Assembly: GCF_007827455.1 (NCBI RefSeq) | Contig: NZ_VISM01000001.1 | Location: 2,457,501 to 2,521,500, forward strand | DNA from: Lutibacter sp. Hel_I_33_5 | GTDB taxonomy: Bacteria > Bacteroidota > Bacteroidia > Flavobacteriales > Flavobacteriaceae | DNA length: 64,000 nt | Direction of reading: 5' to 3' | Shown here: piece after piece, positions 23,008-41,064 of the stretch | Layout: the number at the start of each line of letters is the position of its first letter | Position numbering within the stretch: the first letter of the stretch is position 1 | The notes under the pieces: model-generated | What the model saw: the letters and a program-made list of their open reading frames with translations, nothing else | Told to the model about the DNA's origin: nothing | Database searches by the model: none | Position numbers and translations under genes: made by a program

Positions 23008-23037
23008 CTAAAAAGGTATTGTTGTGAGCAATATAAA

Positions 23038-23246
23038 ATAAAAAACCCACTCCAAAGTATGAAGTGGGAAAATTGCTATGAAAAAGAAAGATACTCTTTA
23101 ACAAGTATCTTGGTTCAAAGATACAATAGAATGTAGTTGTAAACCAAAAAAAATAGATAAAAGGTCGATTTTTATAGATGAAAAGAAATCGATTTCGTAA
23201 AAAACCCACTTCAATTACTTAAAGTGGGAAAATTGCTATGAAAAAT
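23038..23246. repeat. Two copies of a hairpin + GCTATGAAAAA element
   Basis: Two units (about 23038-23112 and 23200-23262) each contain a CCCACTY...RAGTGGG hairpin, the identical spacer AAAATTGCTATGAAAAA, and then a second, unit-specific dyad (AAGATACT/AGTATCTT in one, ATAACAA/TTGTTAT in the other). On the minus strand each first hairpin is followed by TTTTTT, so each could act as a terminator for transcripts from higher coordinates, originally those of ssrA before the island entered. The function of the conserved spacer is unknown. Confidence 0.55.
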
Positions 23247-23345
23247 TATGATAACAACTTGTTATTATAATTTAATAGACGCTTGCTTTTAATATAACTT
23301 ACGTCTATATATAATTTTAACATTTTATTTTGGTAAAATGTATTT

Positions 23346-23363
23346 TGTGGAGACGCCGAGAAT
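23346..23363. other. attL: 18-bp duplicate of the ssrA 3' end
   Basis: TGTGGAGACGCCGAGAAT is identical to 52137-52154, the 3' end of the tmRNA gene. The identity stops at both borders. The integrase gene begins 166 bases inside. This marks the left boundary of the integrated element. Confidence 0.85.
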
Positions 23364-23478
23364 ACTTTAGTATAATTTTTGTTTGTCATTTATTCTTTAT
23401 AAGTTGTTTATTTATAAGGGTTTGTATACTTTTTTTATATCTTAATAATCTTTTTTTATATAATTAGATATAACAAAA

Positions 23479-23499
23479 TTATCAACGATTTTATCAACG
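23479..23499 (+). promoter_or_regulatory. Candidate integrase arm-type sites, left end
   Basis: Two copies of TTATCAACG start at 23479 and 23491, a 12-base period. A similar pair with the same period lies just inside the right end (52073-52093). Such paired short repeats at both ends are what the arm-binding domain of this integrase class would recognise; this is inference. Confidence 0.5.
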
Positions 23500-23528
23500 T
23501 ATAAAAATTTGAAAATAATTTAAAAATT

Positions 23529-24767: not shown

Positions 24768-24812
24768 GTGAAAACTCTTTAATTTTATGAGCCGTATTTA
24801 AGACGGTCAAAA

Positions 24813-24950
24813 GGTGTTACAACGTGATTGTATAAGATTAGTTGCGTTGATTTAGCACTAAAGTTAGCAAATAAATCACAGATAGAAAGTCCGCGAGGAC
24901 TTTCGTAAACTGGCTAAAACCAGCAATTAATTTTATACGGTGTTAGCACC
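24813..24950 (-). repeat. attC-like site 7 (end of the TPR cassette)
   Basis: The gene-side box GGTGCTAAC (complement at 24942-24950) pairs with the cassette start at 25869-25877. The outer stem is GTATAAGATTAGTTGC / GCAATTAATTTTATAC, 16 bp with two G.T wobbles on the plus strand. The inner hairpin GAAAGTCC-GCGA-GGACTTTC shows a compensatory change relative to sites 1 and 2. The distal box GTTGTAACACC (complement at 24813-24823) has no partner further on; the integrase gene follows, so the array ends here. Confidence 0.75.
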
Positions 24951-24956
24951 AGTTTT

Positions 24957-25850
24957 TTATTGTTTTAATTCAACTATTTGTTGTTTCGCAAATTCCTTTG
25001 CTCTTTCATCTCCGAATTCAGCTGTTTTTTCATAATATTCAATAGCTTTTTTCTTGTCGCCTTTCAGTTTGTAACCTTGAGCAATGTTTCCAAGAACAAT
25101 ATAATCTTTCGGATTTATTTTTTCAGCTCGTAAAAGAGGTTCAATTCCTTTATCATATTCTCCAGTTAGTAAATATGTAATTGATAAATTTGATAAACTC
25201 TCAATATGGTTTGGATAAAACTCTAAAACTTTGTTAGCAACATCTCGCATATTTTTTAGTAAATCATCATTTCCAGTATTGTATAGTTGTAACTGATAAT
25301 TTTGAATGTCTAATAGAAAATCTTTTTCTGTTCCATCAAATTTTTCATTGCTAGTCCAAGTCCAATTATTTTTGTTTTTAGCAGAATATTCAATTGTTTT
25401 TAGAATTTCTGATGTGAAATTTTTCCAATCAGGAATTTGTCCAAGTGCATAGATTTTACCAAACCTCATATCAAGTCGATTTGGGTAAAGTTTGATTCCT
25501 TTGTCAATTTTATCAAACCCTTTTTTTAATTCGGTTTGATTGTAGTGAATTTGGCTTCCTAAAAATCCAGCATTTTTATTTAAACTATCTTTTAATACAA
25601 GACTTTCGCCATTTGTTTGGTCATTCGTCAAAGCCAGAACTTCTTGACGAGATTTCATAAAATGATAATTAAAATAACTCGTAAATAGTTCAGCGTCTTT
25701 TGGGTTTTCAGATTGCCATTTTCTCAAAGTTTTCAATTGATTTATTGTGTCATTAGTTTCACAATATTTCTGAAATTCAGATTGATAATTTTGACTAAAG
25801 CCAATTTGTGATATTAAAATCACAATTAAAGTTACAAATATCTTTCTCAT
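24957..25850 (-). CDS. Cassette 7: secreted TPR protein
   Basis: 297 aa from the ATG at 25848-25850, giving MRKIFVTLIVILISQIGFSQ, a clear signal peptide. Longer frames would start inside the attC-like site and are rejected. The mature protein has TPR-like repeats, clearest near the C-terminus (IVLGNIAQGYKLKGDKKKAI, EYYEKTAEFG). The function is unknown; it is probably a periplasmic or lipid-free exported helper. As a complete gene with a short 5' leader inside one cassette it may carry its own promoter or be read from upstream cassettes. Confidence 0.75.
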   Translation of the reverse strand: MRKIFVTLIVILISQIGFSQNYQSEFQKYCETNDTINQLKTLRKWQSENPKDAELFTSYFNYHFMKSRQEVLALTNDQTNGESLVLKDSLNKNAGFLGSQIHYNQTELKKGFDKIDKGIKLYPNRLDMRFGKIYALGQIPDWKNFTSEILKTIEYSAKNKNNWTWTSNEKFDGTEKDFLLDIQNYQLQLYNTGNDDLLKNMRDVANKVLEFYPNHIESLSNLSITYLLTGEYDKGIEPLLRAEKINPKDYIVLGNIAQGYKLKGDKKKAIEYYEKTAEFGDERAKEFAKQQIVELKQ

Positions 25851-25868
25851 TAGTTTTTTTTTCAAATT

Positions 25869-26062
25869 GGTGCTAACGGTTAGTATATGAAAAGTAGGGC
25901 AGGTGATAAGCACTTACTTTTGGATTTATACTGAGCCATATTTTTCATTTTATTTTTATCTTTTTCTAAAATACAAATTAAAAATGTGGCGGACTTTGCA
26001 AATAAGCACAAGCCTTTGATTTAGCAGTTTCCGCCCTATTTTTTATATACATTGTTAGCCAC
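25869..26062 (-). repeat. attC-like site 6 (end of the restriction-modification cassette)
   Basis: 194-bp site of the longer subfamily. The boxes are GGTGCTAAC (25869) and GTTAGCCAC (26054). The outer stem GTATATGAAAAGTAGGGC / GCCCTATTTTTTATATAC is 18 bp with two G.T wobbles at positions equivalent to the other sites. The interior shares AAATTAAAAAT.TGGCGGACTTT with site 4. Confidence 0.75.
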
Positions 26063-26173
26063 TGGCTTTATTCCGCAAACTTTCTAGCGTTGGTAAGACA
26101 TACTCTTTTGCAATTTTTGGCGTAGCGTTGGCTGTAGCGAATTGCGAATGTGTATGGCTTTGAGCGTTGGCTT

Positions 26174-29100
26174 TTACATCGGTTTAATCATTTTTTCAAT
26201 AAATTCAATTTCTTCTTTACTCAATTTATATTTTTCATAAAGTTGCTTGTCAATTTCCTCAATGGATTTACTCCAGTCAATGTCAGATTCAGAAGTGAAA
26301 TTTTGGAGAGGAACAAATTTGTATGTTTTCGATGTTCCGTGTTGGCTTACTTTCGGAATGCTATGCATAAACCTAGTAAACTTAGTAAAACAATAGTTTG
26401 TTAGATTTTTAGCTGATTGTTCTTTTAAATCTAAATCAGCTCCTATAACGATATATGTTTCAGTGCTTATTGTATTTGGCTCTCCTACAAATGCATTTAA
26501 GTTATCATCATTTAACTCTGTCCCAATATTGTTAGCGTAAGGTGCAAATACTTTGAATTTATCAATCCAATTAGTATTTTTTGTGATTTCCTCTTTATTT
26601 AAAAAACCTACTTGTTTCCCTCTACCATAGCACAAAATAGGTGATGTTAGTCCATTCTTTGTAGACCTAAAGATTGTTTTGTTTTTAACAATATTTCCCT
26701 CTAGACCAAAAGGTTTTCTTGAAGATATAATGTTTTGAAAAGACTCAAATTTATCATTTGATTTAACCTTTTTGAGTATGTCTACAGCAATACTGTGTCG
26801 AATAAGAATGTCAGAGTCTTCTGTTTTTAAATTTCTTAAACTTTGAGTTGGGATTAAATTATCATTATAAGTAAATACTTTCGTTAAGTCTTCACTATTA
26901 TCAAAACTCTTATCTCTTAAGAAAAAACAAATACCTCCTCTGTTATTTGTATTGGAGAAAATGATATCTGGCTTTAAAAAATCGTGTAGTTCCGAAACAC
27001 TTTTGTCATTTAACATTTGGTCTCTAAATGTATCTAACCCTTTTCCACCAGCATACCATCTTGTTGGCATAATTATACAGGTGTAGTTAGAATCCAATTG
27101 TTTTGCAATATTTACAAAATGGTGATAAATAGGTCTAGCACTAGCTTGTGCACCTCCATCGCTTTCTTGGTATGGTGGATTACCAACAATTACATTAAAT
27201 TTCATATCGTTGTTGTTAATTTTTATAGTTTCATCTTCAATCAAATCGTTTTCTTTGATTAAATCGTAAGATGTGTAGTTTGATTCTATATTTTTAATTT
27301 CTAGTTCAAGTAGTTTGTATACTTTTCTAGTAAATTCGTAAGCAATCTTGGATGTTGGGATTGAGTAAAAATTATTTGCTACCTTTTTTCCGAATTTTTT
27401 ATATGTGGCATATACAAACTCGCCTTGTTTGGAAGCAATATCAAGTAGTAAAGTAGTTTCTTTTATTGCATCGACAGGTAATGAGTTCATCATTTTATCG
27501 GTAACAATTTCGGGTGTAACAATCTCAGAATCCGATAAGCGACTAAATTTCTTCATCGCATTACTTGCTCTTTCAATTGGTGAAATTGTAGTGTCGTTTG
27601 CTAAAGAATTTATATTAGAGATTTTATAATCTAATTCGCTTAGTATAAAAGGATTAATGTGCTCTTGAAATAGAACAAGTATGTCTGCTTCAAGATTTAA
27701 ATGTGTTGCTATACGCAGATTGTTTTCATCGTTAATTATTGCATTGATAATTTCTTGAAGTGATTTAACAGTTGAATCCGTTAAAAAAGAAAAGAAAAGA
27801 ATTCTTGCATAATACATTGCAAACTTTCCTTTGTAATCTATTTTTTCATCATCTTTTGAAGGTTTTGAATCCTTATCACCTTCATCTGCCTTTTCACTAT
27901 TATCAGGTTCATCACCAGTATCAATATCGTCACCTTCTCCCTCTGATGGTTCTATTTCTAAACCTTGTCTTGATTTTAAACCACCTTGTTTTTCGATTAC
28001 AGCTTTTATTGCCTCTATGTCTAACAAAGAAAAATCTATAGAAATTGATGTGGCTTCATCTAAAACACTCCTTTCATTCGAATATTTGCGAACAGCATCT
28101 AAAATATCTGTTGGCTCAACTTCAACCATTTTTTTGTTGTTAATGACAACTATTGGTGAAATTTGTAGCTCTCTTTTTATTCTTTCTTCTAATTCGGTAT
28201 TTCCGTTAGATTCTACATTAACATTATAAATCTGCGACTTTTGTTCCTGCATTTGGAACACTCTATTAGGATTAAAATCAACTAATAAGGTTTGAGGTTT
28301 CATATTGTATTTTACAATATCGCCATCAGGTTCTTTATAAACCTTAATAAATTGGCTTTGAAGCCTGAAAATTGCTTGGTCGTACTCTTGTGGTGAGGCT
28401 GTATCTTTTAAATAGAGCATAGTATCCCATTCAGGTACTGTACTTCCTGTAAGCATTCTATTTACAGTTAAAGTGATAGTTTTTTTGTTCTCGCTTTCAC
28501 ATTTAATTATTTTAGATTTTACTGACTGTGTGTCTTTGTAAATTTTATCATTTTCTACACCAGAAATATTGATTACTTCGTAAGAACTTAGGTTTTTAAA
28601 TTCATTCGATTTAATTAATTCCTCTAAAGCATCACAGGAAGCACGATAGGGAAGAACACAAACCATATGACGACACATTTTACCTTCTTTCAACTTATCA
28701 TAGTCTAAAAAACTTAATAAATTGTCATCTTCATCTTTACCATCAATCACATTAAGTAAATCGATGATTTCTTGCTCATAAATAAACTTTTTATGTAGTT
28801 GATTTGTGTTGTCTTTAAGTATGGATTTAGGTTTTAATAATTCAGCGAAAGCATAAGTAATACCTGCTTTTTTAAGTTCTTCCATTCTTTGTCTGGAAGA
28901 TTTATTTGGGTTAAATGCAAAACGTATCATTTGAGGAAAACCATAATAAGGGTTATCCCATTCTTTTATTTCATCTTTAATTAGGTTTTGCTCATTCCAA
29001 TTTTCTTGGTCTTCTGCAATATTTGTGAATTGATAAAAAGCGATTATATCGTCATTTGTAAATTCACTATTCATTAAAATTCGATAAGGTGTACCAGATA

Positions 29101-30124
29101 AATGAATGCGAACCTTTGCGTTTATAGTTTTAGTAGTATCGTCTAATTGGTCTATAGATTCATCATTGAGTTTTTCCTCATTTTTTCGTTCTTTGCTTGA
29201 AAAGTCTTTTAAAACCTTACCATATTCTAATGCTCTTGCACCAAAATGTGTCTCGTCAATAAGTAATAAATCAATTTGATTTTCAAATACTTCCTTATGT
29301 TTTGTTTTTATATCATCGCCTTGTAAATCTTGAAGTGTTAGAAATAAAGCGATGTTTTCATTTGCCTCAATTTTTTCTTTAATAATAGAATCACTTTGCA
29401 AAAGTGAGTTACTGTCTAAAAACGTAAATCCATCAAACTTTTTATGGCTTTCTACAGTTTTTTTCCATTCTTCTCTAACATCAGCTTTTGCCGAAACAAT
29501 TAAAACAATTTTTGCATTCATTTCTACTGCACAACACATTGAGGTAAATGATTTGCCAAAACGCATTACAGCATACATTAAAAGATTGTTTCTACCTTTG
29601 TTTAATGCATTTGTGAACCTTTCAATAGTCTCCTTTTGATTTGGTCTTGGCTCATAAGTTTCAGTTCTATTGTAAGTATGAACTATTGGAATATGACTGT
29701 CTTCAAATTTATAGAGCTGATATTTTGTGTCGTTATTTTTATGAGATTCTTTTATATCAATTATAGCATCATCTACGTCCTTTGGTGTAGTATCTTTGAA
29801 AAATTCATTTGAATAATATGGCATTGACTCTAAGGAATCAGGCAATAATCTAGACTTTTGAATATCGTTTTCTAAATATTTATGAACTGCAAAATCTCTA
29901 AAAAAAGTTTCTTCATCTATCTTTGCTACTTCTTGAAATTTCTTCTCTAGTTCAGGAAAATATTTTCTCCATTCATTAAGTCTTGTTTCTACTGGTCTGT
30001 AGGTATCGCCAATTTTTAAATAATTAGGAATTGTTCCAGTTGTGAAAGCGTAAATATGAGGCTCAACTCTTCCGATGATTAATTCCTCAAGTATTTGTAT
30101 ATCTAGTTGATTATTTTCTGCCAT
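26174..30124 (-). CDS. Cassette 6: fused nuclease-helicase-methyltransferase restriction enzyme
   Basis: 1316 aa single-chain restriction-modification enzyme. Residues about 24-95 resemble a GIY-YIG/T5orf172 nuclease (IYAFTTG, YLKIGDTYRPVETRL, FFRDF.VHKYL). A superfamily-2 helicase core follows, with a Walker A variant MRFGKS (about 184-189), DETH box (about 290) and LSGTPYR. The C-terminal half is an Eco57I-type adenine methyltransferase with motif I LLDIASKQGEF and motif IV NPPY (982-985), then a target-recognition-like region. A Glu/Asp-rich linker around residue 720-760 separates the halves. It overlaps the preceding gene by 14 bases. It probably cuts unmethylated foreign DNA; the recognition site is unknown. 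Confidence 0.8.
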   Translation of the reverse strand: MAENNQLDIQILEELIIGRVEPHIYAFTTGTIPNYLKIGDTYRPVETRLNEWRKYFPELEKKFQEVAKIDEETFFRDFAVHKYLENDIQKSRLLPDSLESMPYYSNEFFKDTTPKDVDDAIIDIKESHKNNDTKYQLYKFEDSHIPIVHTYNRTETYEPRPNQKETIERFTNALNKGRNNLLMYAVMRFGKSFTSMCCAVEMNAKIVLIVSAKADVREEWKKTVESHKKFDGFTFLDSNSLLQSDSIIKEKIEANENIALFLTLQDLQGDDIKTKHKEVFENQIDLLLIDETHFGARALEYGKVLKDFSSKERKNEEKLNDESIDQLDDTTKTINAKVRIHLSGTPYRILMNSEFTNDDIIAFYQFTNIAEDQENWNEQNLIKDEIKEWDNPYYGFPQMIRFAFNPNKSSRQRMEELKKAGITYAFAELLKPKSILKDNTNQLHKKFIYEQEIIDLLNVIDGKDEDDNLLSFLDYDKLKEGKMCRHMVCVLPYRASCDALEELIKSNEFKNLSSYEVINISGVENDKIYKDTQSVKSKIIKCESENKKTITLTVNRMLTGSTVPEWDTMLYLKDTASPQEYDQAIFRLQSQFIKVYKEPDGDIVKYNMKPQTLLVDFNPNRVFQMQEQKSQIYNVNVESNGNTELEERIKRELQISPIVVINNKKMVEVEPTDILDAVRKYSNERSVLDEATSISIDFSLLDIEAIKAVIEKQGGLKSRQGLEIEPSEGEGDDIDTGDEPDNSEKADEGDKDSKPSKDDEKIDYKGKFAMYYARILFFSFLTDSTVKSLQEIINAIINDENNLRIATHLNLEADILVLFQEHINPFILSELDYKISNINSLANDTTISPIERASNAMKKFSRLSDSEIVTPEIVTDKMMNSLPVDAIKETTLLLDIASKQGEFVYATYKKFGKKVANNFYSIPTSKIAYEFTRKVYKLLELEIKNIESNYTSYDLIKENDLIEDETIKINNNDMKFNVIVGNPPYQESDGGAQASARPIYHHFVNIAKQLDSNYTCIIMPTRWYAGGKGLDTFRDQMLNDKSVSELHDFLKPDIIFSNTNNRGGICFFLRDKSFDNSEDLTKVFTYNDNLIPTQSLRNLKTEDSDILIRHSIAVDILKKVKSNDKFESFQNIISSRKPFGLEGNIVKNKTIFRSTKNGLTSPILCYGRGKQVGFLNKEEITKNTNWIDKFKVFAPYANNIGTELNDDNLNAFVGEPNTISTETYIVIGADLDLKEQSAKNLTNYCFTKFTRFMHSIPKVSQHGTSKTYKFVPLQNFTSESDIDWSKSIEEIDKQLYEKYKLSKEEIEFIEKMIKPM

Positions 30125-31121
30125 TTATTGATTTCTTATTTTCTATTAGGTCAATAAACCTTAGTTTTTTCCCTTTTAAATCTTTGTTTGACCAGTCCAT
30201 AACTAAACAGTAAATTCCATTATGTTCAAGCATATTGTTGTTAAGACAGCCTTTACAAAATGAATTGTCTGTTTCTTCTTCTCCAAATAGGTTAACTGAT
30301 TTTGTTTTTATTTCACCACAAGAGAATGGAACAACACCTTTTAAACCATCCATTTGCCAAACATTCCAAGAAATTATATATGCTATCTCTTGAATTGATT
30401 TAAGTAAAGGTTCTTTTCTGAATTTATGTTTGTAGTTTTCAATGAAAGTAAATAGCATTGACTCTCTTGCTAATAACAAACTGTCACCTTGCCATTCATA
30501 AGCATAAGTATTTTTATAAGCAGACTTTATTGCCTTAAGCCATTCACTAGAATCATCAACATTTTCGTTTATAACTCTTAGTTTTCTATCTAATAAACCA
30601 ATCCTGCTTTCAATCTTAATGAACTTACCTGTTGTAGTATCGTATCTACTTGTTATGTATGGTGCTTCTCCACAAGAAATTTCAAGTCGAGTATCATTTA
30701 CATAATCTATCCAAGTCTTATTTTTGGGGAATTCAATTTTTGTTTGGTTAGTTTTCCATTTTTTTTCATCTGGAATTTCTTTATTGAAAACATTTTTTCT
30801 TTCGAACCAAGCATTATCTATTAAGTTATTTTGTGCATTACATATCCAAGATGGTGTAAATACTTCAGCCATTTTTTTTACTCTGGAATGTTGTAATATT
30901 TGGTCTTTTTGAACCCTTGGCATTATTACATTTCCATTTATACCAGTAATATGCTCAGATTGAATCTGATTACATTCTAAATATTGTTCTCCCAAATGCT
31001 CATAATTACTTGTTGCCCAAATAATGTTTTTTTGAGTTGTTTGGTCTCGTAAAAGAATATCCAAAACTTTTGGATATTTTTCTAAGATTTCATTTTCTAA
31101 TATGTCTATTTCCGTCCTCAA
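30111..31121 (-). CDS. Cassette 6: N6-DNA-methylase-like subunit
   Basis: 336 aa. It contains AEVFTPSWICNAQNN, EISCGEAPYITSRYD and SWNVWQMDGLKG, blocks found in annotated restriction-modification M-like subunits that accompany the large fused enzyme. A standard DPPY/NPPY catalytic tetrad is not evident, so it may be a specificity, accessory or degenerate methylase unit rather than an active enzyme. A CxxC-like pair (SFCKGCL) near residue 300 may bind metal. It overlaps the HTH gene by 4 bases and the big enzyme by 14, so the three genes are one operon. Confidence 0.65.
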   Translation of the reverse strand: MRTEIDILENEILEKYPKVLDILLRDQTTQKNIIWATSNYEHLGEQYLECNQIQSEHITGINGNVIMPRVQKDQILQHSRVKKMAEVFTPSWICNAQNNLIDNAWFERKNVFNKEIPDEKKWKTNQTKIEFPKNKTWIDYVNDTRLEISCGEAPYITSRYDTTTGKFIKIESRIGLLDRKLRVINENVDDSSEWLKAIKSAYKNTYAYEWQGDSLLLARESMLFTFIENYKHKFRKEPLLKSIQEIAYIISWNVWQMDGLKGVVPFSCGEIKTKSVNLFGEEETDNSFCKGCLNNNMLEHNGIYCLVMDWSNKDLKGKKLRFIDLIENKKSINGRK

Positions 31122-31318
31122 TTCAGCTCTTTTATTGGCACTAGTAATTCTTTTGCTTCAACATTTAAGATTTCAGCAATTTTGTATAAATCCTCTAAAC
31201 TTGGTTGTCTCCTGTTTTGTGCATAAGAGTTAACCATATTGTAACTTTTTTCTAGTTTTTCAGCTAGCCATTTTTGCTTAATTCCTTTTTCGTCTAAAAC
31301 CTCTTTAATTCGGTTCAT
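31118..31318 (-). CDS. Cassette 6: XRE-type HTH controller protein
   Basis: 66 aa, almost entirely one HTH_3 domain (IKQKWLAEKLEKSYNMVNSY, recognition helix region NRRQPSLEDL). Size and position as first gene of the restriction operon match controller (C) proteins, which delay restriction until methylation is established. Two matching palindromes lie 22-63 bases upstream of its start and are likely its own operators. Confidence 0.85.
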   Translation of the reverse strand: MNRIKEVLDEKGIKQKWLAEKLEKSYNMVNSYAQNRRQPSLEDLYKIAEILNVEAKELLVPIKELN

Positions 31319-31339
31319 AATTGAATTATTTATTTCAGT

Positions 31340-31381
31340 TTACTAAAGTAAGAAGAATTATTAATTATCTCACTAAATGAG
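31340..31381. promoter_or_regulatory. Paired palindromes, candidate C-box operators
   Basis: TTACTAAAGTAA (31340-31351) and CTCACTAAATGAG (31369-31381) are two dyads sharing the ACTAAA core, with centres about 30 bases apart. They lie directly upstream of the controller gene, where C-protein operators are found. They leave room for a promoter between them and the start codon. Confidence 0.6.
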
Positions 31382-31496
31382 TATTAAAATAATCACTATG
31401 TTTGGGTGAGTGTTGGAAAAAGGCAAGCTCTTTTTATTTTGTGAGGCACGAGCAAAATGAAATGTGCTTGACTGTGCGGTTGGCTTTTCAGAGCTT

Positions 31497-31630
31497 GTGG
31501 CTAACGGTCTAGTATAAGAATAGTAGCGAATTTTCACGCATTAACTTTTCGGTTAACACAGACCTTTTTTATATTTACTTACTTTCGGTTTAGCGACTAA
31601 ACCGCTATTATTTTTATACATTGTTGGCAA
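31497..31630 (-). repeat. attC-like site 5 (end of the S41 peptidase cassette)
   Basis: 134-bp site. Boxes GTGGCTAAC (31497-31505) and GTTGGCAA (31623-31630). Outer stem GTATAAGAATAGTAGCG / CGCTATTATTTTTATAC, 17 bp with the same two G.T wobbles on the plus strand. The interior contains the dyads CGGTTAACACAG and CGGTTTAGCGACTAAACCG. Confidence 0.75.
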
Positions 31631-31633
31631 TAG

Positions 31634-33055
31634 TTATTTTCCTGATTTCTCTTTTTCAAGTTCTATGACTAATTCAATTGCTTTGTCTTTTTTGTTTTTT
31701 AAATCATTTGTTAGTTGGTCTAAAAACTCATCTTTATTTGTTGAATATTCCAATGGATAATCTGCGGAAATTCCCACATTTTCATAGTTTTTGCCTTTTA
31801 AATCTTGATAAACTTCGTTAGATAATTCGTATTCCCAACCATTTGGAAGTTCTTTATCTAAAGTCGATGAAAAAATTCCTTCTGTTGTCGAGCCAATTCT
31901 TTTGAAATTGGAATTAGCTAAAGATGCTAAAACAAGAATTTCGGAAGCACTTGCTGTTAAATTACTTGTTAGCAAATATACGTTTCCATTAAAATGATTT
32001 TTTGACGGAATAATTTTAAACTTTTGAGGATTTGCAAAACCTTTTTCTATTCTTGCTTTTTTTGTGTAAGCCAATTTTTCTTTATCGGAAAAGTGGTTTA
32101 AAATGTCAAGTGCAACAGCATCTTTTCCGCCACCATTAAAACGCAAATCCAAAATATAACTTTTTGCTTGTGGTAAGTTTTTAATTATTGAATTCAATAT
32201 TTTGTTGATTCCGTCAACTTCGTCTTGCCTTTGTAATTCATCTTTTCTATTCTCTGCTTTTTCCCAATATTGACCATAGAAATTTCTTAAATCTAAATCT
32301 TTCTCCAAATTATAATCCGCTAACATTAGCATAGAATTGATTTGAATGTAACCTACATTTTTCTTGATAAGTCCGTAACGAACCATTCCTGCATTGTAAT
32401 TACGTAAACTATCAACATAAAATTCAGCAATTTCTTTGTTGAGATTAAATTCGTCCAATTTAGAATACTTTTCTTCTTGTTCTTTAATTTTATTTTTATA
32501 CTCGTTTTCAATTTTTTCGGGTACTTCCATTTTGACGTGTCCATCATTTAGAATTGCAATCATTTCCTTAAAAATTGTATAAAGTTCTAAATCTGTGGTG
32601 TTCTCGTTTACTTTAGGTTTGTATTTTTTATAGACTTCTTTCCAATTAATGTCTTTAATATCAAAAGATGCGTAATGTTCATTGAATGTATCCCAAAACA
32701 CTTGAAAGTTAATTTTTGGGTCGTTATTTAATTCGCTCGTAGTTTTACAGAGATTTGGTAATTTCTCTAATCTAGTAAATAGCCAATCATCATTTCCGTG
32801 TTGAATTGTTAATGTTTCTTTTGAATAGTTTGTGACTTTTCCAAAATCTAAAATATGTTCTTTAAAAGATAAATTACAATCTTGCTTTGAAATATTATAA
32901 ACGCTTATAATTGTGTCATTCAATTCGATAATATTTCCATATCCAATTTGTTTCCAAAATCCGTCTGGTTTCGGTTTTTCGTTTGATACTTTTTCATTAC
33001 ACGAACACAGAATAAAAAATAATATAAAGACTGATAAAAATTTAATGTTTTTCAT
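31634..33055 (-). CDS. Cassette 5: S41-family peptidase lipoprotein
   Basis: 473 aa with a lipobox (ILCSC, Cys 19). The S41/CtpA-like catalytic core lies in the C-terminal half: VGYIQINSM (about 234), ILDLRFNGGG (301-310), VYLLTSNLTASASEIL with the probable nucleophile Ser around 369, and a STTEGIFSSTL loop. There is no PDZ domain, unlike classical CtpA. It is probably a cell-envelope serine protease of unknown substrate. The stop codon lies 3 bases from the attC-like box, the usual compact cassette arrangement. Confidence 0.85.
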   Translation of the reverse strand: MKNIKFLSVFILFFILCSCNEKVSNEKPKPDGFWKQIGYGNIIELNDTIISVYNISKQDCNLSFKEHILDFGKVTNYSKETLTIQHGNDDWLFTRLEKLPNLCKTTSELNNDPKINFQVFWDTFNEHYASFDIKDINWKEVYKKYKPKVNENTTDLELYTIFKEMIAILNDGHVKMEVPEKIENEYKNKIKEQEEKYSKLDEFNLNKEIAEFYVDSLRNYNAGMVRYGLIKKNVGYIQINSMLMLADYNLEKDLDLRNFYGQYWEKAENRKDELQRQDEVDGINKILNSIIKNLPQAKSYILDLRFNGGGKDAVALDILNHFSDKEKLAYTKKARIEKGFANPQKFKIIPSKNHFNGNVYLLTSNLTASASEILVLASLANSNFKRIGSTTEGIFSSTLDKELPNGWEYELSNEVYQDLKGKNYENVGISADYPLEYSTNKDEFLDQLTNDLKNKKDKAIELVIELEKEKSGK

Positions 33056-33080
33056 TCTGTTTCTTGGTTTGTTTTAATTA

Positions 33081-33281
33081 TTGCCAACGGTCTTGTGTAT
33101 GAAACGTAGCGTATAAATAAACACTAACTTTTCGGATTAACACAGAGCCGAATTTTTATATTTTGTTTTTAATTTTTCTCTTTTTAAAAGCCAAATTAAA
33201 AATTTGGCGGACTTTTTAAATATACACAAACCTTTCGATTAAGCACTTATTAGCTATGTTTTATACACCGTGTTGTGTACA
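33081..33281 (-). repeat. attC-like site 4 (end of the 174-aa hypothetical cassette)
   Basis: 201-bp site of the longer subfamily. Boxes TTGCCAAC (33081-33088) and GTTGTGTACA (33272-33281). Outer stem GTGTATGAAACGTAGC / GCTATGTTTTATACAC with G.T wobbles at the two usual positions. The interior shares the AAATTAAAAATTTGGCGGAC block with site 6. Confidence 0.75.
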
Positions 33282-33282
33282 G

Positions 33283-33807
33283 TTATTTTTTCATATTGTC
33301 AAATGTCAAAACTACTTTCGGTTTTTGAGCATCCATAAACATTTTACTTCTACCAAATAGACAAATTTTTCCAATTTCGTTAAATACGTTGTGTTCTCCG
33401 TTTGAGTTAATCAGAACTTCTGCAGTACAAATTCCGTCAAGATGATTTTCGTCAATATATTTCCAATGATTTTCAATTTCGTCTTTAAAAACAATATTAA
33501 AAGCAGGTTCATTATATTGAATTGTATAATTTCCGTCATCCATTTCTGTCGGATTAAAATCAGGATGAGCGTTGTAAATCTTATCAAGTATTTCTATAGC
33601 AGAAGAGTTAATATCTGAAACTCTTTCCGGAAACATTATTACAGTTCCATTTTCAAAAACAGCAATTTGTATTTTTTTATCGGTGTAATACTTAGATTTT
33701 TCTAAAATCAAATTCAAATCGATAGGCAAGTTCGGTTTCCATTTCGGTTTAGGTGGAAAGTCAATTACTTCTTTTTTTTTGTTAAATAGTTTATCAAATA
33801 TTCCCAT
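33283..33807 (-). CDS. Cassette 4: hypothetical protein
   Basis: 174 aa, no recognised domain. It starts MGIFDKLFNKKKE, a basic amphipathic N-terminus seen in many small cytoplasmic proteins, followed by a proline-rich KPKWKPNLPID linker and a mixed alpha/beta region with several acidic stretches. No signal peptide or membrane segment. The stop codon is immediately before the TGTACACAAC box. Orphan genes of this kind are usual in integron cassettes. Confidence 0.7.
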   Translation of the reverse strand: MGIFDKLFNKKKEVIDFPPKPKWKPNLPIDLNLILEKSKYYTDKKIQIAVFENGTVIMFPERVSDINSSAIEILDKIYNAHPDFNPTEMDDGNYTIQYNEPAFNIVFKDEIENHWKYIDENHLDGICTAEVLINSNGEHNVFNEIGKICLFGRSKMFMDAQKPKVVLTFDNMKK

Positions 33808-33827
33808 TCGTTCGAGTTTGTTTTAAT

Positions 33828-33956
33828 TGTACACAACGTTGTTGTGTATGGTTAGTTGCGTGGTTAAGCAACTAAGTTAACAAACATTTACGAACCCGTG
33901 AAAATTCCGCAGGAATTTTCGTAAGTAGGTAAGAACCAAGCAATTAATTATACACG
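33828..33956 (-). repeat. attC-like site 3, larger part, split by the IS110 element
   Basis: Box TGTACACAAC (33828-33837), outer stem GTGTATGGTTAGTTGC / GCAATTAATTATACAC ending at 33955, and inner hairpin GAAAATTCC-GCA-GGAATTTTC. The missing final box GTTAGGCAAC is found on the far side of the IS at 35186-35195. Joining ATTATACACG to TTGTTAGGC gives the same order seen in uninterrupted sites 1 and 2. Confidence 0.7.
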
Positions 33957-34013
33957 GCTTAAGTTAGCATTTTAATAAAAAGGTTAAATTAAGCAATATA
34001 AATTAGAAAGCAC

Positions 34014-34153
34014 AGAAGAGAGGATTAAGGTTATTATATACGGAGAGACTATTGATCTCGTCAACATTGAAAATCCCCTCTCTTTTCTACACAGATTTCG
34101 TACAGTTTTATGAGGCTTCAGACCTCGATTTTAAGTCGTTGAAACTTGCGTAG
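34014..34153 (+). ncRNA. Candidate bridge RNA of the IS110 element
   Basis: The non-coding DNA upstream of the transposase folds into two stem-internal-loop-hairpin units, as in IS110 bridge RNAs. Unit 1: stem 34014-34026 with 34072-34088, distal hairpin GAGA/TCTC (34045-34059), left loop containing ATTATATACG. This matches the target flank ATTATACACG with one wobble-compatible change. Unit 2: outer CTAC/GTAG, distal hairpin GAGG/CCTC (34112-34126); the left loop has ACAGT, as at the IS right end (35176-35180), and the right loop has AACTT, complementary to AAGTT at the left end (33961-33965). Structure and guides are by eye. Confidence 0.55.
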
Positions 34154-34180
34154 GTTGTCCTTTCGTTAAAACATTTTCTT

Positions 34181-35152
34181 ATGAATAAAGATATTAAATA
34201 TTTTGGAATAGACATTAGTCATTTAGTATTTGATGTTACAGATTCTTCTGGTAATTACTATCAGTTTAAAAACAATGTAACTGGATTTAAAAAATTTGTA
34301 AAACATCTAGATTACAATAGTCATTGTGTAATGGAAGCTACAGGTTATTACCATTACAGGTTGGCTTATTTTTTACAGGAAAACAGTATAAAAGTTTCAG
34401 TAGAAAACCCTCTGTCGGTGAAACGCTTTATCCAGATGAAGTTATCAAAAATAAAGACAGATAAAAGCGATTCAAGATTGATTTGTGAGTATGCAAAACA
34501 AGTTGAATTAAAGTTATGGCAAGGTAATTCAAAACATCAGTTAGAATGCTTACAAATGACAAGACTTCTTTCTGTGTATACAAAACAGAGTACTATGTTA
34601 AAAAACAAAATACATGGAGAAGAAGTTTTGGGCAATCCAAGTAAAGTAGTTACGAGCTCATTAAAAAGTAGTTTGAGACAGGTAACAAAACAAATAGAAA
34701 AGGTAGAAGCAGCATTATTAATTTTAGTAAGAAAGCTACATCAAGATGTTTTAACACGCTTAAAAACAATACCTGGAATTGGAAATAAAACAGCGCTAAT
34801 GCTAGTTGTTTTAACAGATGGATTTGATCGTTTTAAAAGCGGAAGTGAATTGTGTAGTTATGCTGGATTAACTCCTGTAATTAGACAAAGTGGAAGTAGT
34901 ATAAATGGACGAGCCAGAATAAGTAAAATAGGCAACCAGAAGCTTCGAAATTTATTATTTATGTGCAGTTTTAATGCTTGTAAATACAACAAGGCTTGTA
35001 GAGAAATTTATGAACGAATAGTTGCCAAAGGAAAGAGTAAAAAATTAGCATTAATAGCGGTGTGTAATAAACTATTAAAACAAGCATTTGCCATTGCTAA
35101 ATCAGGATTAATATATGATGATACTTATAGAAGTACTTTAGTGAATATTTAA
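34181..35152 (+). CDS. IS110-family transposase (DEDD recombinase)
   Basis: 323 aa. The N-terminal DEDD (RuvC-like) domain shows D11 in FGIDIS, E52 in VMEATGYY and the TDKSDSR pair (about D94/D97). The C-terminal Transposase_20 domain has the LKTIPGIGNKTALML helix-hairpin-helix and the likely Ser nucleophile S237 in RQSGSS. All catalytic positions appear present, so the element may be active. IS110 enzymes join IS and target under direction of a bridge RNA. Confidence 0.93.
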   Translation: MNKDIKYFGIDISHLVFDVTDSSGNYYQFKNNVTGFKKFVKHLDYNSHCVMEATGYYHYRLAYFLQENSIKVSVENPLSVKRFIQMKLSKIKTDKSDSRLICEYAKQVELKLWQGNSKHQLECLQMTRLLSVYTKQSTMLKNKIHGEEVLGNPSKVVTSSLKSSLRQVTKQIEKVEAALLILVRKLHQDVLTRLKTIPGIGNKTALMLVVLTDGFDRFKSGSELCSYAGLTPVIRQSGSSINGRARISKIGNQKLRNLLFMCSFNACKYNKACREIYERIVAKGKSKKLALIAVCNKLLKQAFAIAKSGLIYDDTYRSTLVNI

Positions 35153-35186
35153 TGAGTTTTTACTTGTTTTTTACCACAGTACTTTG

Positions 35187-35504
35187 TTAGGCAACGTTTT
35201 TTAATTCGGTTAATTTTTCTGATAAAAATTCCGTTATTATATTATTCAATTCCGATTTTTTTATTTTTTCGATAATCTTATATTCAGATTTCTCCGTTTT
35301 AAAAATAAGAAATTCTATTTCCAAATATTCCATTTCTCCATTTGAGTAATAAAATATTTCTCCAGCAAAATTATTCGTTTCAAATTTTATTCCTTCGCTA
35401 GATGGATAATATATGGATTTACTAAATTTCGCATATTTCAATTCCGAAACTTTATAAATATTATGTTCCTCAAAAGTTTTGGAAATGATTTTCAAGTATT
35501 CCAT
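35187..35504 (-). CDS. Cassette 3: small hypothetical protein (second gene)
   Basis: 105 aa, no recognised family. It is rich in aromatic and acidic residues (IYYPSSEGIKF, IFYYSNGEMEYLEIEFLIF), resembling immunity- or antitoxin-like small proteins, but this is only a resemblance. The stop codon TAA is formed inside the cassette box GTTGCCTAAC. The IS110 element lies directly after that box, so any transcript running on toward cassette 4 would cross the IS in antisense. Confidence 0.6.
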   Translation of the reverse strand: MEYLKIISKTFEEHNIYKVSELKYAKFSKSIYYPSSEGIKFETNNFAGEIFYYSNGEMEYLEIEFLIFKTEKSEYKIIEKIKKSELNNIITEFLSEKLTELKNVA

Positions 35505-35507
35505 ATT

Positions 35508-35771
35508 TCAAATTTTCAAGTCCTCGATTACTTTTTCTAATTCGATTTTGAAATTTCTCCATTCAGAATATTCTTTATCAGGAATGGTACTAAAATCAAT
35601 ATCTTCTGTTACTTTACTAATCCCAAATTTGTTTTCGTCAAGTTGAATACAGTAAAAATCCTTATTTATCCAAACATCAACCATAAATGCACCAGAGTCA
35701 AAAGAATGAATTTCGTGTCGAATTCCTTTATGTTTAATTAATTCCGATATTTTGTCGACGTACTGTTTCAT
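35508..35771 (-). CDS. Cassette 3: small hypothetical protein (first gene)
   Basis: 87 aa, no recognised family; short alpha/beta protein with FMVDVWINKDFYCIQL and a C-terminal helix. It begins 6 bases from the cassette start box and ends 3 bases before the next small gene, so both are one two-gene cassette. Paired small genes in cassettes are often toxin-antitoxin or immunity modules, but nothing in either sequence proves this. Confidence 0.6.
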   Translation of the reverse strand: MKQYVDKISELIKHKGIRHEIHSFDSGAFMVDVWINKDFYCIQLDENKFGISKVTEDIDFSTIPDKEYSEWRNFKIELEKVIEDLKI

Positions 35772-35776
35772 CTAAT

Positions 35777-35913
35777 GTTGCCTAACGGTTTTGTGTATGA
35801 TTAGTGGCGTGTTTAAGCACCTAATTTAGCAAATAAAAACCGAATAGAAAATCCGCGAGGATTTTCGTAAGTAAGCTTGAACTAGCCATTAATTATACAC
35901 GTTGTTGTAAGCA
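35777..35913 (-). repeat. attC-like site 2 (end of the DUF723-like cassette)
   Basis: 137 bp. Boxes GTTGCCTAAC (35777-35786) and GTTGTAAGCA (35904-35913). Outer stem GTGTATGATTAGTGGC / GCCATTAATTATACAC with two G.T wobbles; inner hairpin GAAAATCC-GCGA-GGATTTTC. Over 90 percent identical to site 1 although the flanking cassettes are unrelated. Confidence 0.8.
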
Positions 35914-37044
35914 GTTTTTTATTTCCGCTTTTAATATTTTGTCAATTTTTTCTAATTCCAAATAATTAATTCGGATTAGTTTATAATTATGTTCAGAAGC
36001 GAATTCGTTTTTAATTTCGTCTCTAATTTTCAATGATTTTAATGCTTTTTCTCCTCCCCAAATTGAAATGGGTTCAAAATGTTGAATTCCGTCAAATTCT
36101 ATTAACGTTTTTAAATTTGGTAAATAAAAATCAAATGGTAGAGTTGTTTTGTGACTACAATCTTTAAATCTCTTTTGGTATTTATATTCAATTCCTTGAC
36201 TCTCTAAATAAAGCCTTATTTTTCTCTCTCCAGTCGTCTCTTTGCATTTTGGACATCCTTTTCCAGTTGAATAAATATGGTCACTTGGTGTTTGTTTAAA
36301 AAATCCGTGAACTTCACATTTAATTTTCACTTTTTGATGTGCGTTTATGTAATTTACTTTATCGTAATTGTAAATTTCTCCGTGTTGTTTAATTGCTCTT
36401 TCTATAAATTGCTCTTTTGTCAATCCAGAATTTCCTGTGCATTTCGGACAATTATGACCTTTCAGATGAGCAGAAGCAAATTGAGACCACTTTCCGTGCT
36501 CTTTGCAAACAATGGTAATTTTTCTATCTGCTCCTTTGTATTTCGCTAAAGAATAATCATATCTATTTCCGTGAATTTCTTTTGCAATGCTGATAAATTC
36601 ATCTAATGTTCGAGTAAATAATTCTGAATGTCCATCTAAACCACATTGATAACATCCTTTTTTATCGTTAACGTGATTGTCAGGTGTTTGTCTAAAATCT
36701 CCGTGTTTTTTACAAGTGATTATTATTTTGGAAAATGCTCCATTATAATCTAATTCGGATTTTGAATAATTGTATTTTTCTCCGTGAATTTTTATTGCTT
36801 GAGTTTTAAACTTTAAAAAAGGTTTTGTTCTTTTAGTCTTCGATTTTTCAATTCCGCAAATCGGACAACCTTGTTTTCTGTTTAAATGTTTGTAAGGTGT
36901 TTGAAAAAATGTTCCGTGTTCTGGAATTTTACAAATTATTTCAAGTTTTGAATCAACATTTATATATTCAGATTTCGAATAATCATATTGCTCTCCGTGA
37001 ATAGCAATTGCCTTTTCAATGAATATGTTTGTCTTTTCGTTCAC
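35893..37044 (-). CDS. Cassette 2: zinc-finger-repeat endonuclease-like protein
   Basis: 383 aa from a GTG at 37042-37044, the first usable start after the attC-like site; a longer frame would begin inside the site. It has four to five repeats of about 60 residues, each with an IHG..YDYSKSEY strand, a C.(E/K)HG pair and a C..CG knuckle, like DUF723 proteins. The C-terminus (LIEFDGIQHFEPISIWGG, KLIRINYLE) looks like a PD-(D/E)xK/Vsr-type nuclease fold, with the pattern E.D..QH. It probably binds and nicks or cuts DNA. The last codons read through the cassette box and the stop TAA lies within the attC stem. Confidence 0.7.
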   Translation of the reverse strand: MNEKTNIFIEKAIAIHGEQYDYSKSEYINVDSKLEIICKIPEHGTFFQTPYKHLNRKQGCPICGIEKSKTKRTKPFLKFKTQAIKIHGEKYNYSKSELDYNGAFSKIIITCKKHGDFRQTPDNHVNDKKGCYQCGLDGHSELFTRTLDEFISIAKEIHGNRYDYSLAKYKGADRKITIVCKEHGKWSQFASAHLKGHNCPKCTGNSGLTKEQFIERAIKQHGEIYNYDKVNYINAHQKVKIKCEVHGFFKQTPSDHIYSTGKGCPKCKETTGERKIRLYLESQGIEYKYQKRFKDCSHKTTLPFDFYLPNLKTLIEFDGIQHFEPISIWGGEKALKSLKIRDEIKNEFASEHNYKLIRINYLELEKIDKILKAEIKNCLQQRV

Positions 37045-37056
37045 GGTTTTCTCAAA

Positions 37057-37194
37057 TTGCTTACAACGGTTTTGTGTATGATTAGTGGCGTGTTTAAGCA
37101 CCTAATTTAGCAAATAAAAACCGAATAGAAAATCCGCAAGGATTTTCGTAAGTAGGCGAGTACTAGCCATTAATTATACACGTTGTTCTACGCA
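37057..37194 (-). repeat. attC-like site 1 (end of the first cassette)
   Basis: 138 bp. Boxes TTGCTTACAAC (37057-37067) and GTTCTACGCA (37185-37194). Outer stem GTGTATGATTAGTGGC / GCCATTAATTATACAC, inner hairpin GAAAATCC-GCAA-GGATTTTC. The spacer is 6 bases on one side and 3 on the other, giving unpaired bases of the kind that set polarity in known attC sites. Confidence 0.8.
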
Positions 37195-38126
37195 GTTTTT
37201 ATTCTTTTTATTAATTCACTTTTTTCAATTAAAATCTCTGGAAATTCTAGAAGTTTGATTTTGCTCTCGATTTCTACAAGTTCCAATTTTTCCTTTCCAA
37301 ACTGTACTTTAAATTTAGCTTTTTCAGGCAGTATTTGTAAATATTCACAAAGTTCTTTTGGGTATTCATTGATTTGGTCAGTTAACTTATAAATCCACCT
37401 TAAAATATCATTAACAGACTCCGCAACATTCATTCCGTGTCCACTTGTCATTCTTCCGCCTCCAGGACTAAAATATACAGTATCTCGAATTTTTGTCATT
37501 GGTAAAGAATATCCTTTGTCCCATAAAGTTTGTCTTTCAGTTGCATTTACTTTTGGGTTTACATCTTTCCAATGTTTAATTTTATATTGAGAAATTAGTT
37601 CGGGAAAATTATCGTGTAGAATTTCAATCCATTTCGTGTCTGCAAAAATCCCGTATTTATGTTTATCTGTTCCTAAAATTACAAAAACATCGTCTGTTAT
37701 ATAAACGAAAAGTAAACTGTCAACTTGTTTTACAAATTTGGATTTTTTGTCTTTTTCTGAAGATAAGTGAAAGTGATATATATTCCATTCATTGAGCAAA
37801 TGGTCGTGAAATCTACTTTGAATAACTCTTTTGCTTTGGAAATAATTCAAATTCCTTCCACTTTTTGCAATGTTAAAGATAAGTTCTATTTCCTTTCTTT
37901 TTGGGTGTAGAATAATCTCTTTTACGAAATTCGGATTGACTAATACTTTTCTGATTTTTGGATTAATTAACTTTAGTCTTATTGCCAAATAATTTCGAAG
38001 AATGTCATTTGTTTTTTCGCTATTCGGAATTTTTAAATCCATTTGTTTTAAAAGACGTTTAATTTCATCTTTTAATTGGTTTTCAAAAGTGGTCTTTGAT
38101 AGATTCAATTTCGTTGGTTTGGTCAA
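37188..38126 (-). CDS. Cassette 1: hypothetical protein
   Basis: 312 aa if a TTG only 3 bases after the cassette box is used; the first ATG would give 283 aa starting MDLKIPNSEK, and the choice is open. No recognised family. It has a basic helical N-terminal third, then a beta-rich centre (YHFHLSSEK, LLFVYITDDVFVILGT, YGIFADTKWIEILH) and a helical acidic tail. The stop TAG lies inside the GCGTAGAAC box. As the first cassette it lies behind whatever promoter drives the array. Confidence 0.65.
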   Translation of the reverse strand: MTKPTKLNLSKTTFENQLKDEIKRLLKQMDLKIPNSEKTNDILRNYLAIRLKLINPKIRKVLVNPNFVKEIILHPKRKEIELIFNIAKSGRNLNYFQSKRVIQSRFHDHLLNEWNIYHFHLSSEKDKKSKFVKQVDSLLFVYITDDVFVILGTDKHKYGIFADTKWIEILHDNFPELISQYKIKHWKDVNPKVNATERQTLWDKGYSLPMTKIRDTVYFSPGGGRMTSGHGMNVAESVNDILRWIYKLTDQINEYPKELCEYLQILPEKAKFKVQFGKEKLELVEIESKIKLLEFPEILIEKSELIKRIKTA

Positions 38127-38128
38127 AT

Positions 38129-38216
38129 TGCGTAGAACTAGTTATATCCAATCAAATATATGGATTTATTATGTTAATTTACGGGATAACAGAACATTTG
38201 ACTTGTTATTATCCGT
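38129..38216 (-). other. First cassette junction, attI-like position
   Basis: The cassette-1 start GTTCTACGCA (complement 38129-38138) is joined upstream to DNA with no attC-like stem; the sequence before the junction reads GGATATAACTA on the minus strand. The 75 bases to the SRAP gene contain ATAACA/TGTTAT and ATCC/GGAT dyads. In integrons this place is held by attI. Whether it is a true attI, a secondary site or a fused relic cannot be decided here. Confidence 0.4.
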
Positions 38217-38861
38217 TTAAAATATACTCAATTGATGATTGTCAAAGTCCAAATTATTTGAAATCAATTTATGTTCATAAGGGAAACCAAATTTTTTATA
38301 ATCATCACCGTTTAACCAAAAAGATTCATCTTCTTTTTTCAAAATTACTGGCATTCTTTTTTTGGTATTGTGAATTTTACTCATAAATTCATTTGCTTGT
38401 GTTGTTACTATTGAGTAAGAATGAATAATTTGCCCTTCCATATCTGTCCATGAAGAATATATGCCAGCAAAAGCAAATAAATCCTCATTAGGAATCGTAA
38501 TTAAATATTTTTCTTTTTTAGTGCCGCTTTTATTTAACCATTTCCATTCATAAAAACCATTTGCAATTATTAAACATCTATTTTGAATTACATCTTTAAA
38601 AGATCTTTTTTCATTTAGAGTTTCTATCCTTGCATTTAGTGTATAATGTCTATGCGAAGTATCTGATGACCATGATGGAATTAATCCCCAGTTAAACAAA
38701 CTTGCTTTATTAGGTTCATTGCAAGTAATGACAGGAGTTTTAGGGTAGTCAAATGCTTTTATTACATCTGTAGGGTCAAAATTATCAATATCTTGAATAT
38801 CGATATTAAATCTTTCTTGAATCTCTTCTTTTTTTTTAATTAATCGTGTTTGATAGCACAT
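38217..38861 (-). CDS. SOS-response-associated peptidase (SRAP, YedK/HMCES type)
   Basis: 214 aa. The catalytic Cys is residue 2 (MCYQTR) after Met removal, and the active-site blocks ANGFYEWKW and the His in MSKIHNTKKRMPVIL are present. YedK forms a stable thiazolidine crosslink with abasic sites in single-stranded DNA and so shields them during replication. The gene overlaps the upstream exonuclease gene by 26 bases and belongs to the minus-strand half of the island's repair module. Confidence 0.92.
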   Translation of the reverse strand: MCYQTRLIKKKEEIQERFNIDIQDIDNFDPTDVIKAFDYPKTPVITCNEPNKASLFNWGLIPSWSSDTSHRHYTLNARIETLNEKRSFKDVIQNRCLIIANGFYEWKWLNKSGTKKEKYLITIPNEDLFAFAGIYSSWTDMEGQIIHSYSIVTTQANEFMSKIHNTKKRMPVILKKEDESFWLNGDDYKKFGFPYEHKLISNNLDFDNHQLSIF

Positions 38862-41012: not shown

Positions 41013-41014
41013 AA

Positions 41015-41031: not shown

Positions 41032-41064
41032 ATCAATGTGTAAAAATGAAACTATTTTTGTTAA

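What the first reader, a model, noticed from the sequence alone, without database searches (positions are those of the whole stretch)
24813..38138. Integron-like cassette array without integron integrase in a Flavobacteriaceae island
Seven consecutive units on the minus strand each begin with GTT plus a unit-specific sequence and end with the reverse complement of that same sequence, immediately before a conserved foldable element. The pairing is unit-specific (for example GTTCTACGC/GCGTAGAAC, GTTGTAAGC/GCTTACAAC, GTTAGCCAC/GTGGCTAAC), exactly as expected if a circular cassette is joined at G^TT of its own attC. All genes point the same way, have little spare DNA, and several stop codons are inside the boxes. 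Known attC R boxes follow GTTRRRY; here only GTT is constant (GTTCTAC, GTTGTAA and GTTGTGT occur). No IntI is in the window. Not seen in sequence: any evidence of current movement.
Basis: partly seen in the sequence, partly recalled or inferred. Interest (0 to 1): 0.95.

Follow-up and report, generated by a model that had tools for sequence, protein, structure and literature searches.

The report
Integron with a non-standard integrase
A flavobacterium carries seven gene cassettes whose matching end boxes and hairpin sites are those of an integron, a gene-capturing platform, likely moved by a recombinase of the same chromosome that lacks the segment typical of classical integron enzymes; sites of this kind were found in 176 of 199 sampled genomes of its family.

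Summary
Each of seven units starts with GTT plus bases complementary to its own end (9-10 nt; other units' ends match 0-3 beyond GTT) and ends in a foldable site. The missing recombinase is about 1 Mb away in the same chromosome: 394 aa, followed by an attI-like sequence and its own array. A 95% identical 79-bp copy of that attI lies directly before the window's first unit. A covariance model finds 30 sites in this genome, up to 118 in 100 kb in a sister species, and sites in 176 of 199 sampled Flavobacteriaceae genomes. Boxes match in 241 of 269 adjacent pairs (shuffled mean 14). Cassettes shared between species, behind attI in one and attC in the other, join exactly at GTT. Two nearly invariant A·C positions become G·T wobbles in the bottom strand, predicted to fold better in 247 of 250 cases. 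The recombinases lack the ~40-aa IntI patch, form a clade outside IntI, and lie on the array's strand. So it works like an integron but has neither the canonical R-box consensus nor a canonical IntI. Recombination by this enzyme is inferred, not shown. In the open-access papers I searched I found no description of such a system in Flavobacteriaceae.

The parts
38138..38216 (-). attI-like element, copy of the one behind the integrase gene at 1.472 Mb; ends at the G of the first GTT
   Evidence: 95% identity over 79 nt to G000:C1:1472447-1472525; third copy, 61 nt, at 2965353
37068..38138 (-). cassette 1: box GTTCTACGCA, gene 37188-38126 (312 aa, PD-T4-7-like), site S1 37059-37193
   Evidence: boxes; PADLOC E 2.9e-35
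35787..37067 (-). cassette 2: box GTTGTAAGCA, gene 35893-37101 (402 aa, DUF723/DUF4379), site S2 35778-35912
33838..35786 (-). cassette 3: box GTTAGGCAAC, two small genes 35508-35771 and 35187-35504, site S3 35194-33829 split by an IS110-family element
33089..33837 (-). cassette 4: box GTTGTGTACA, gene 33283-33807 (174 aa), site S4 33080-33280
31506..33088 (-). cassette 5: box GTTGGCAATA, S41 peptidase gene 31634-33055, site S5 31497-31631
   Evidence: gene 91% and 83% identical in two other genera
25878..31505 (-). cassette 6: box GTTAGCCAC, genes 30111-31121 (PADLOC label MTase_II) and 26174-30124 (type IIG restriction-methylase), site S6 25869-26062
24824..25877 (-). cassette 7: box GTTAGCACCA, TPR protein gene 24957-25913, site S7 24815-24950
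34181..35152 (+). IS110-family transposase gene of the element inside site S3; not part of the cassette
   Evidence: Pfam and NCBIfam

Best explanation
The window holds a seven-cassette integron-type array behind a copied attI, likely served in trans by the chromosome's patch-less tyrosine recombinase, which is predicted to insert and release circular cassettes at G^TT through the folded bottom strand of their hairpin sites. Shown by sequence: own-unit complementary boxes, the attI copy, uniform site orientation, covarying stems, nearly invariant A·C positions, the order integrase-attI-array elsewhere in this genome and in relatives, shared cassettes joined at GTT, and absence of the IntI patch. 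Inferred: that this recombinase is the enzyme, that the substrate is single-stranded, that the G·T wobbles and one asymmetric loop do the work of the extrahelical bases and IntI patch in choosing the strand, and that the arrays still move.
For: Boxes. attI copies identical or nearly so up to GTT and followed by different cassettes: three in this genome, two in G001. Each of the nine array stretches had an upstream partner box for its first site, preceded by an attI-like sequence. Junctions: cassette A3|1 (behind attI) vs G016|3 (behind attC), identity before GTT 21/60, after 37/40; G021|1 (attI) vs G013|23 and |111 (attC), before 18/60, after 40/40 and 39/40, and at the far end 41/43 and 39/43 before and with GTT, 24/60 and 27/60 after. 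Stem covariation: 11 of 17 pairs change on both sides in 147 distinct rows (the alignment was fitted to the model, which leans towards it). A·C columns: A 150 and 149, C 144 and 148 of 150. Bottom strand more stable in 247 of 250 units tested of 278, mean 4.7 kcal/mol; random windows 110 of 270. Integrase beside arrays: in 21 of 80 loci found by the integrase family the model matches, leaving out L186, are 53 of 53 on the integrase strand, 51 downstream. Co-occurrence in the family: integrase in 118 of 176 genomes with sites, 3 of 23 without (Fisher p 8e-7, not corrected for kinship or genome size).
Against: No recombination was observed. 58 of 176 site-bearing genomes had no integrase match at E<=1e-45. 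Many scattered sites in this genome lack a recognisable partner box or adjoin an IS end. Homologous S41 cassettes in three genera carry different site bodies, so gene and site are not always inherited together; likewise the last ~160 nt of A3|1 do not align to G016|3. 68 of 276 cassettes have no ORF of 50 aa, and in 22 of 208 with one the longest ORF is on the other strand. In locus L186 five sites lie on the strand opposite to a patch-less recombinase. The integrase model has pTM 0.52 and low confidence around the catalytic tyrosine.
Confidence: 0.87

Rival explanations
1. An ordinary integron whose IntI only lost its patch: the recombinases would be a derived branch of IntI, and the sites divergent classical attC.
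For: The integrase core matches Vibrio IntI4 (3.3e-37). A site of Polaribacter phage P12002L was recombined by class 1 IntI1 through its bottom strand (PMC9892861, section 13), and that phage has eight matches to my site model at E<=0.0031, though I could not tell whether the tested site is one of them.
Against: In the tree the IntI rows form one group (100/99) and 27 Bacteroidota patch-less rows another (99/95), neither inside the other; the best structural match is archaeal XerA. The root of the two is not resolved, and two patch-less rows from other phyla join IntI (90/84).
Confidence: 0.3
2. The array is a dead relic: the sites are recognised by nothing today.
For: Worn scattered sites and IS insertions; no local integrase in the window.
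Against: Intact boxes in all seven units, an uninterrupted integrase frame in this genome, species-specific first cassettes behind conserved attI, cassettes shared across genera.
Confidence: 0.08
3. The elements are terminators, REP-like or transposon-end repeats that happen to lie between genes.
For: They are imperfect palindromes between genes, and scattered single copies exist.
Against: Such repeats do not predict pairing with the far end of the same unit (241 of 269), an attI, or one shared strand with an integrase (53 of 53). Rfam at E<=1 gave one weak, unrelated match in 22500-39000.
Confidence: 0.02
4. The tyrosine recombinase at 23529-24767, convergent with the array's last unit, serves this array.
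For: It ends 46-56 nt from the last site.
Against: Weak relative only (Pfam 42.6 bits; IntI model 24 bits), not among this genome's matches to the array integrase, and not at the attI end as in the other arrays.
Confidence: 0.03

Closest known systems
Classical chromosomal integrons with IntI (for example Vibrio cholerae superintegron; details recalled)
   Same: Integrase, attI, one-way arrays of cassettes of up to 118 sites in 100 kb, cassette start complementary to its own end, bottom-strand folding bias, junction at GTT.
   Different: No IntI patch; R boxes fit GTTRRRY in 26 of 269; integrase co-directional with the cassettes and attI at its 3' end; conserved G·T wobbles, and in 159 of 250 predicted bottom strands one asymmetric loop as the only irregularity of the outer 27 pairs.
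CALIN (cluster of attC sites lacking integron integrase; term from PMC9024848 and PMC9892861)
   Same: The window: attC-like sites and cassettes with no integrase at the locus.
   Different: It has an attI copy, and the genome has a candidate integrase; the sites are not of the canonical kind.
CALIN of Polaribacter phage P12002L (PMC9892861)
   Same: Host related to this family; the phage has eight matches to the site model at E<=0.0031.
   Different: Published as attC of unknown source; two adjacent sites were tested there, one was recombined by IntI1; boxes match less well than in the arrays (5,3,2,5,5,6 of 7).
XerA and other Xer recombinases
   Same: Best sequence and fold match of the integrase core (1e-43; Foldseek 8.2e-16 with low TM-scores 0.38/0.52); no patch.
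   Different: An extra N-terminal domain of about 95 residues and cassette arrays; that XerA acts on chromosomal sites without cassettes is recalled.

Membership tests
Classical integron (IntI-based) | Integrase with the IntI additional domain (patch) | tested here: not met
   Aligned members lack ~40 residues that IntI1 has; spacing 50-70 in 59 of 67 proteins tested, 85 or more in 7, 81 in one. Definition by patch: PMC2426708 passages.
Classical integron (IntI-based) | R boxes of the form GTTRRRY / RYYYAAC | tested here: not met
   26 of 269 start boxes, 13 of 103 distinct ones; GTT itself in 275 of 278 sites.
Classical integron (IntI-based) | attI next to the integrase gene, array in one direction | tested here: met
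   in the window attI without integrase.
Classical integron (IntI-based) | Cassette start complementary to its own end | tested here: met
Classical integron (IntI-based) | Recombination between G and TT | tested here: inconclusive
   Homology of shared cassettes begins at GTT; GTT is common to both sides, so the cut within it is not fixed by comparison, and no assay was possible.
Classical integron (IntI-based) | Bottom-strand attC with extrahelical bases | tested here: inconclusive
   Bottom strand predicted more stable in 247 of 250. In 159 of 250 the only irregularity is one asymmetric loop; some have a further one-base bulge. Predictions only.
Classical integron (IntI-based) | Cassette promoter Pc near attI | tested here: inconclusive
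   The Bacteroidota -7 motif TAnnTTTG (recalled) lies 22 nt before GTT in 4 of 8 attI printed, three of which are copies in this genome.
CALIN | At least two attC with no integrase at the locus | tested here: inconclusive
   Seven sites and no array integrase in the window; but standard tools that define CALIN were not available here.

The most novel reading that the evidence does not exclude
Flavobacteriaceae and other Bacteroidia run their own, overlooked integron superfamily: an ancient patch-less branch, or an independent origin, of integrons that picks the attC strand by conserved wobble pairs instead of extrahelical bases and the IntI patch, with superintegrons of over 100 cassettes and plasmid and phage outposts.
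Probability: 0.5. Interest if true: 0.95.

Novelty: new variant of a known kind. Interest (0 to 1): 0.9.

Why it matters
A large survey of integrons reported a complete integron in one Bacteroidetes genome, Salinibacter ruber M1 (PMC9024848, passages), yet sites of the kind described here were found in 176 of 199 sampled Flavobacteriaceae genomes. If it works as inferred, a large bacterial family has a cassette-shuffling system that searches built on the IntI patch and GTTRRRY would miss, and patch-less integrases make it testable whether the patch was needed for integrons to arise and how a folded strand is chosen without it. It also opens a large pool of cassette genes, in this window including phage-defence genes.

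Tried and rejected
Rejected: the recombinase at 23529-24767 as the array's enzyme, Rfam families, ordinary repeats (see rivals). Not carried through: empty-site search for scattered single cassettes; the conserved attI and shared-cassette junctions served instead. Not followed: several scattered sites end in GTTAGCGAA or a near form. The first tree was replaced by a more careful one, in which 12 of 15 new Bacteroidota IntI loci were dropped because my motif filter did not recover them; in both, L182 and L188 were put in the IntI group before their patch was measured (later 101 and 81 residues against 100 in the reference). The pair G013|93 and G016|61 (86%) does not resolve a border, as both follow attC. 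L186 (titled Methylophaga MAG) was left out of the 53-of-53 count: five matches, all on the strand opposite to a patch-less recombinase, boxes matching in one of four pairs. The 150-row alignment A3 holds the best matches only (150 of 280). Search lists were capped; counts come from their tallies and genome tables.

Papers: search listings (open-access PMC text, no preprints); passages of PMC9024848, PMC2426708, PMC8138268, PMC9892861 (71, with section 13), PMC2727003. That no such system is described rests on these nine searches alone.

Full report
What was checked. The seven units at 24813-38138 on the minus strand are real. Each starts with GTT and unit-specific bases whose reverse complement stands at its own end (10 nt in six units, 9 in one); other units' ends match at 0-3 positions beyond GTT. 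Each end runs into a foldable site of 135-201 nt; site 3 is split by an IS110-family element.

The missing parts lie elsewhere in the chromosome. The genome is one contig of 3,101,420 bp with four Phage_integrase matches. One, at 1,471,310-1,472,491 (+; L002 5311-6495; 394 aa), overlaps at its 3' end a sequence that recurs, 95% identical over 79 nt, immediately before the window's first unit, and again over 61 nt (95%) at 2,965,353. The three copies are followed by different cassettes right after GTT. This is the order integrase, attI, array. The window's array thus has a copied attI, directly behind a gene for an SRAP protein in an operon with an exonuclease/GIY-YIG protein and an S24-type regulator, with DNA polymerase and IMS genes divergent; calling this an SOS operon is inference.

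The sites. A covariance model (R1) from six sites gives 30 matches at E<0.05 in this genome, a match at E<=0.01 in 36 of 36 genomes of the genus, this one included, and in 7 of 23 others of the order, and at E<=0.001 in 176 of 199 genomes of the family sample. I took nine array stretches of six genomes apart: 118 sites in 100 kb in G013, 65 in 120 kb in G016, 41 in G001, 28 in G024, 9 in G021 and 17 in this genome. Of 269 adjacent pairs 241 have matching boxes (>=6 of 7), against a shuffled mean of 14.3 and a maximum of 27. The two boxes of one site match in 29 of 269, close to that maximum, as neighbours are often alike. There are 103 distinct boxes, 13 of which fit GTTRRRY. What is kept is complementarity, not sequence.

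Strand asymmetry. In the 150 best sites 11 of 17 stem pairs change on both sides. Two positions are A on the left (150 and 149) and C on the right (144 and 148) of 150: mismatches in the top strand, G·T wobbles in the bottom strand. With each site closed by its own start box, the bottom strand is predicted more stable in 247 of 250 units tested (28 of 278 left out for poor boxes or length), by 4.7 kcal/mol on average; random windows of the same arrays favour it in 110 of 270. The predicted bottom-strand hairpin most often has an outer stem of 10-13 bp, then a loop with three more bases on its 5' side, then a long inner stem; in 159 of 250 this loop is the only irregularity among the first 27 pairs, in 13 there is none. 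In classical attC strand choice is directed by extrahelical bases (PMC2727003, passages). That wobbles take this part here is inference.

The recombinase. Among solved structures it is closest to archaeal XerA and then Vibrio IntI4 (the model has pTM 0.52). Aligned members lack the ~40 residues that IntI1 has before HxLRH; the spacing is 50-70 in 59 of 67 proteins tested against about 100 in seven IntI-like ones. PMC8138268 (passages) describes that insertion as not fully conserved in the integron-like subgroup but essential for integron function. The family carries instead about 95 N-terminal residues, modelled as a small alpha/beta domain. In the tree, ten IntI rows (100/99) and 27 Bacteroidota patch-less rows (99/95; 28 rows at 86/82) are separate; of four patch-less rows from other phyla two join IntI (90/84) and two are unresolved. 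In 80 loci found by this family, the model matches in 22; leaving out L186, 53 of 53 matches in 21 loci are on the integrase strand, 51 downstream, in Flavobacteriaceae and also in records titled Algoriphagus, Rufibacter and Bacteroidales. A Chryseobacterium plasmid has a relative (38%) with five weaker matches downstream, E 3e-5 to 7e-4. Classical IntI over the curated cut-off occurs in 84 of 296 genomes of the phylum sample: in none of the 30 listed of this genus and family, and in one of the same class outside them.

Movement between genomes. Cassette 1 of the third array of this genome, behind attI, is 88% identical over about 4.0 of 4.2 kb to cassette 3 of G016, behind attC; identity is 21/60 before GTT and 37/40 after. 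G021 cassette 1 (attI) matches eleven G013 copies (attC) at 94-96%; in the two pairs shown identity is 18/60 before GTT and 39-40/40 after, and it falls again after the far GTT. In G013, 81 of 118 units have a near-identical copy in the array. The window's S41 peptidase gene is 91% and 83% identical to genes in two other genera, each followed by a site of this kind, although the site bodies differ. This shows transfer and the junction, not present activity.

Cassette genes of the window include a type IIG restriction-methylase with a companion labelled MTase_II, and a PD-T4-7-like protein. Over 276 units the longest ORF is on the site's strand in 186, on the other in 22, and 68 have none of 50 aa.

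Against the reading. No recombination was observed; 58 of 176 site-bearing genomes lack an integrase match at E<=1e-45; many scattered sites here are worn or adjoin an IS. 'Integron' therefore means 'works like an integron': membership in the IntI-based family is not claimed, since two defining features were tested and not met.

Noticed in passing
33977-35186 (transposase 34181-35152 +): An IS110-family element sits between the R' box and the inner stem of site S3; the same or a near form of its end sequence adjoins at least five sites of this genome, so this IS appears to target such sites.
   Followed up: partly
L116 (Chryseobacterium plasmid NZ_CP041688.1), 11974-23722: A plasmid-borne relative of the system, with an IS110-family transposase and a group II intron in the array, both on the strand opposite to the cassette genes.
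   Followed up: partly
L198 (Polaribacter phage P12002L): Eight sites of this kind in a lytic phage; seven are on the strand opposite to most neighbouring genes.
   Followed up: partly
L098-L102 (G013): An array dominated by near-identical short cassettes (81 of 118 units have a near copy); many cassettes over all arrays have no ORF of 50 aa (68 of 276).
   Followed up: no
G000:C1 scattered sites, e.g. L021, L024, L029, L035: Single sites away from arrays often end in GTTAGCGAA or a near form, as if a common secondary target or remnant.
   Followed up: no
L186 (PAJP01000008.1, titled Methylophaga MAG): A patch-less recombinase with sites of this kind on the opposite strand, on a contig that may be misbinned.
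   Followed up: partly
38217-45272: SRAP, exonuclease/GIY-YIG and S24-type regulator genes next to divergent DNA polymerase III alpha-like and IMS polymerase genes; the attI copy starts right behind the SRAP gene.
   Followed up: no
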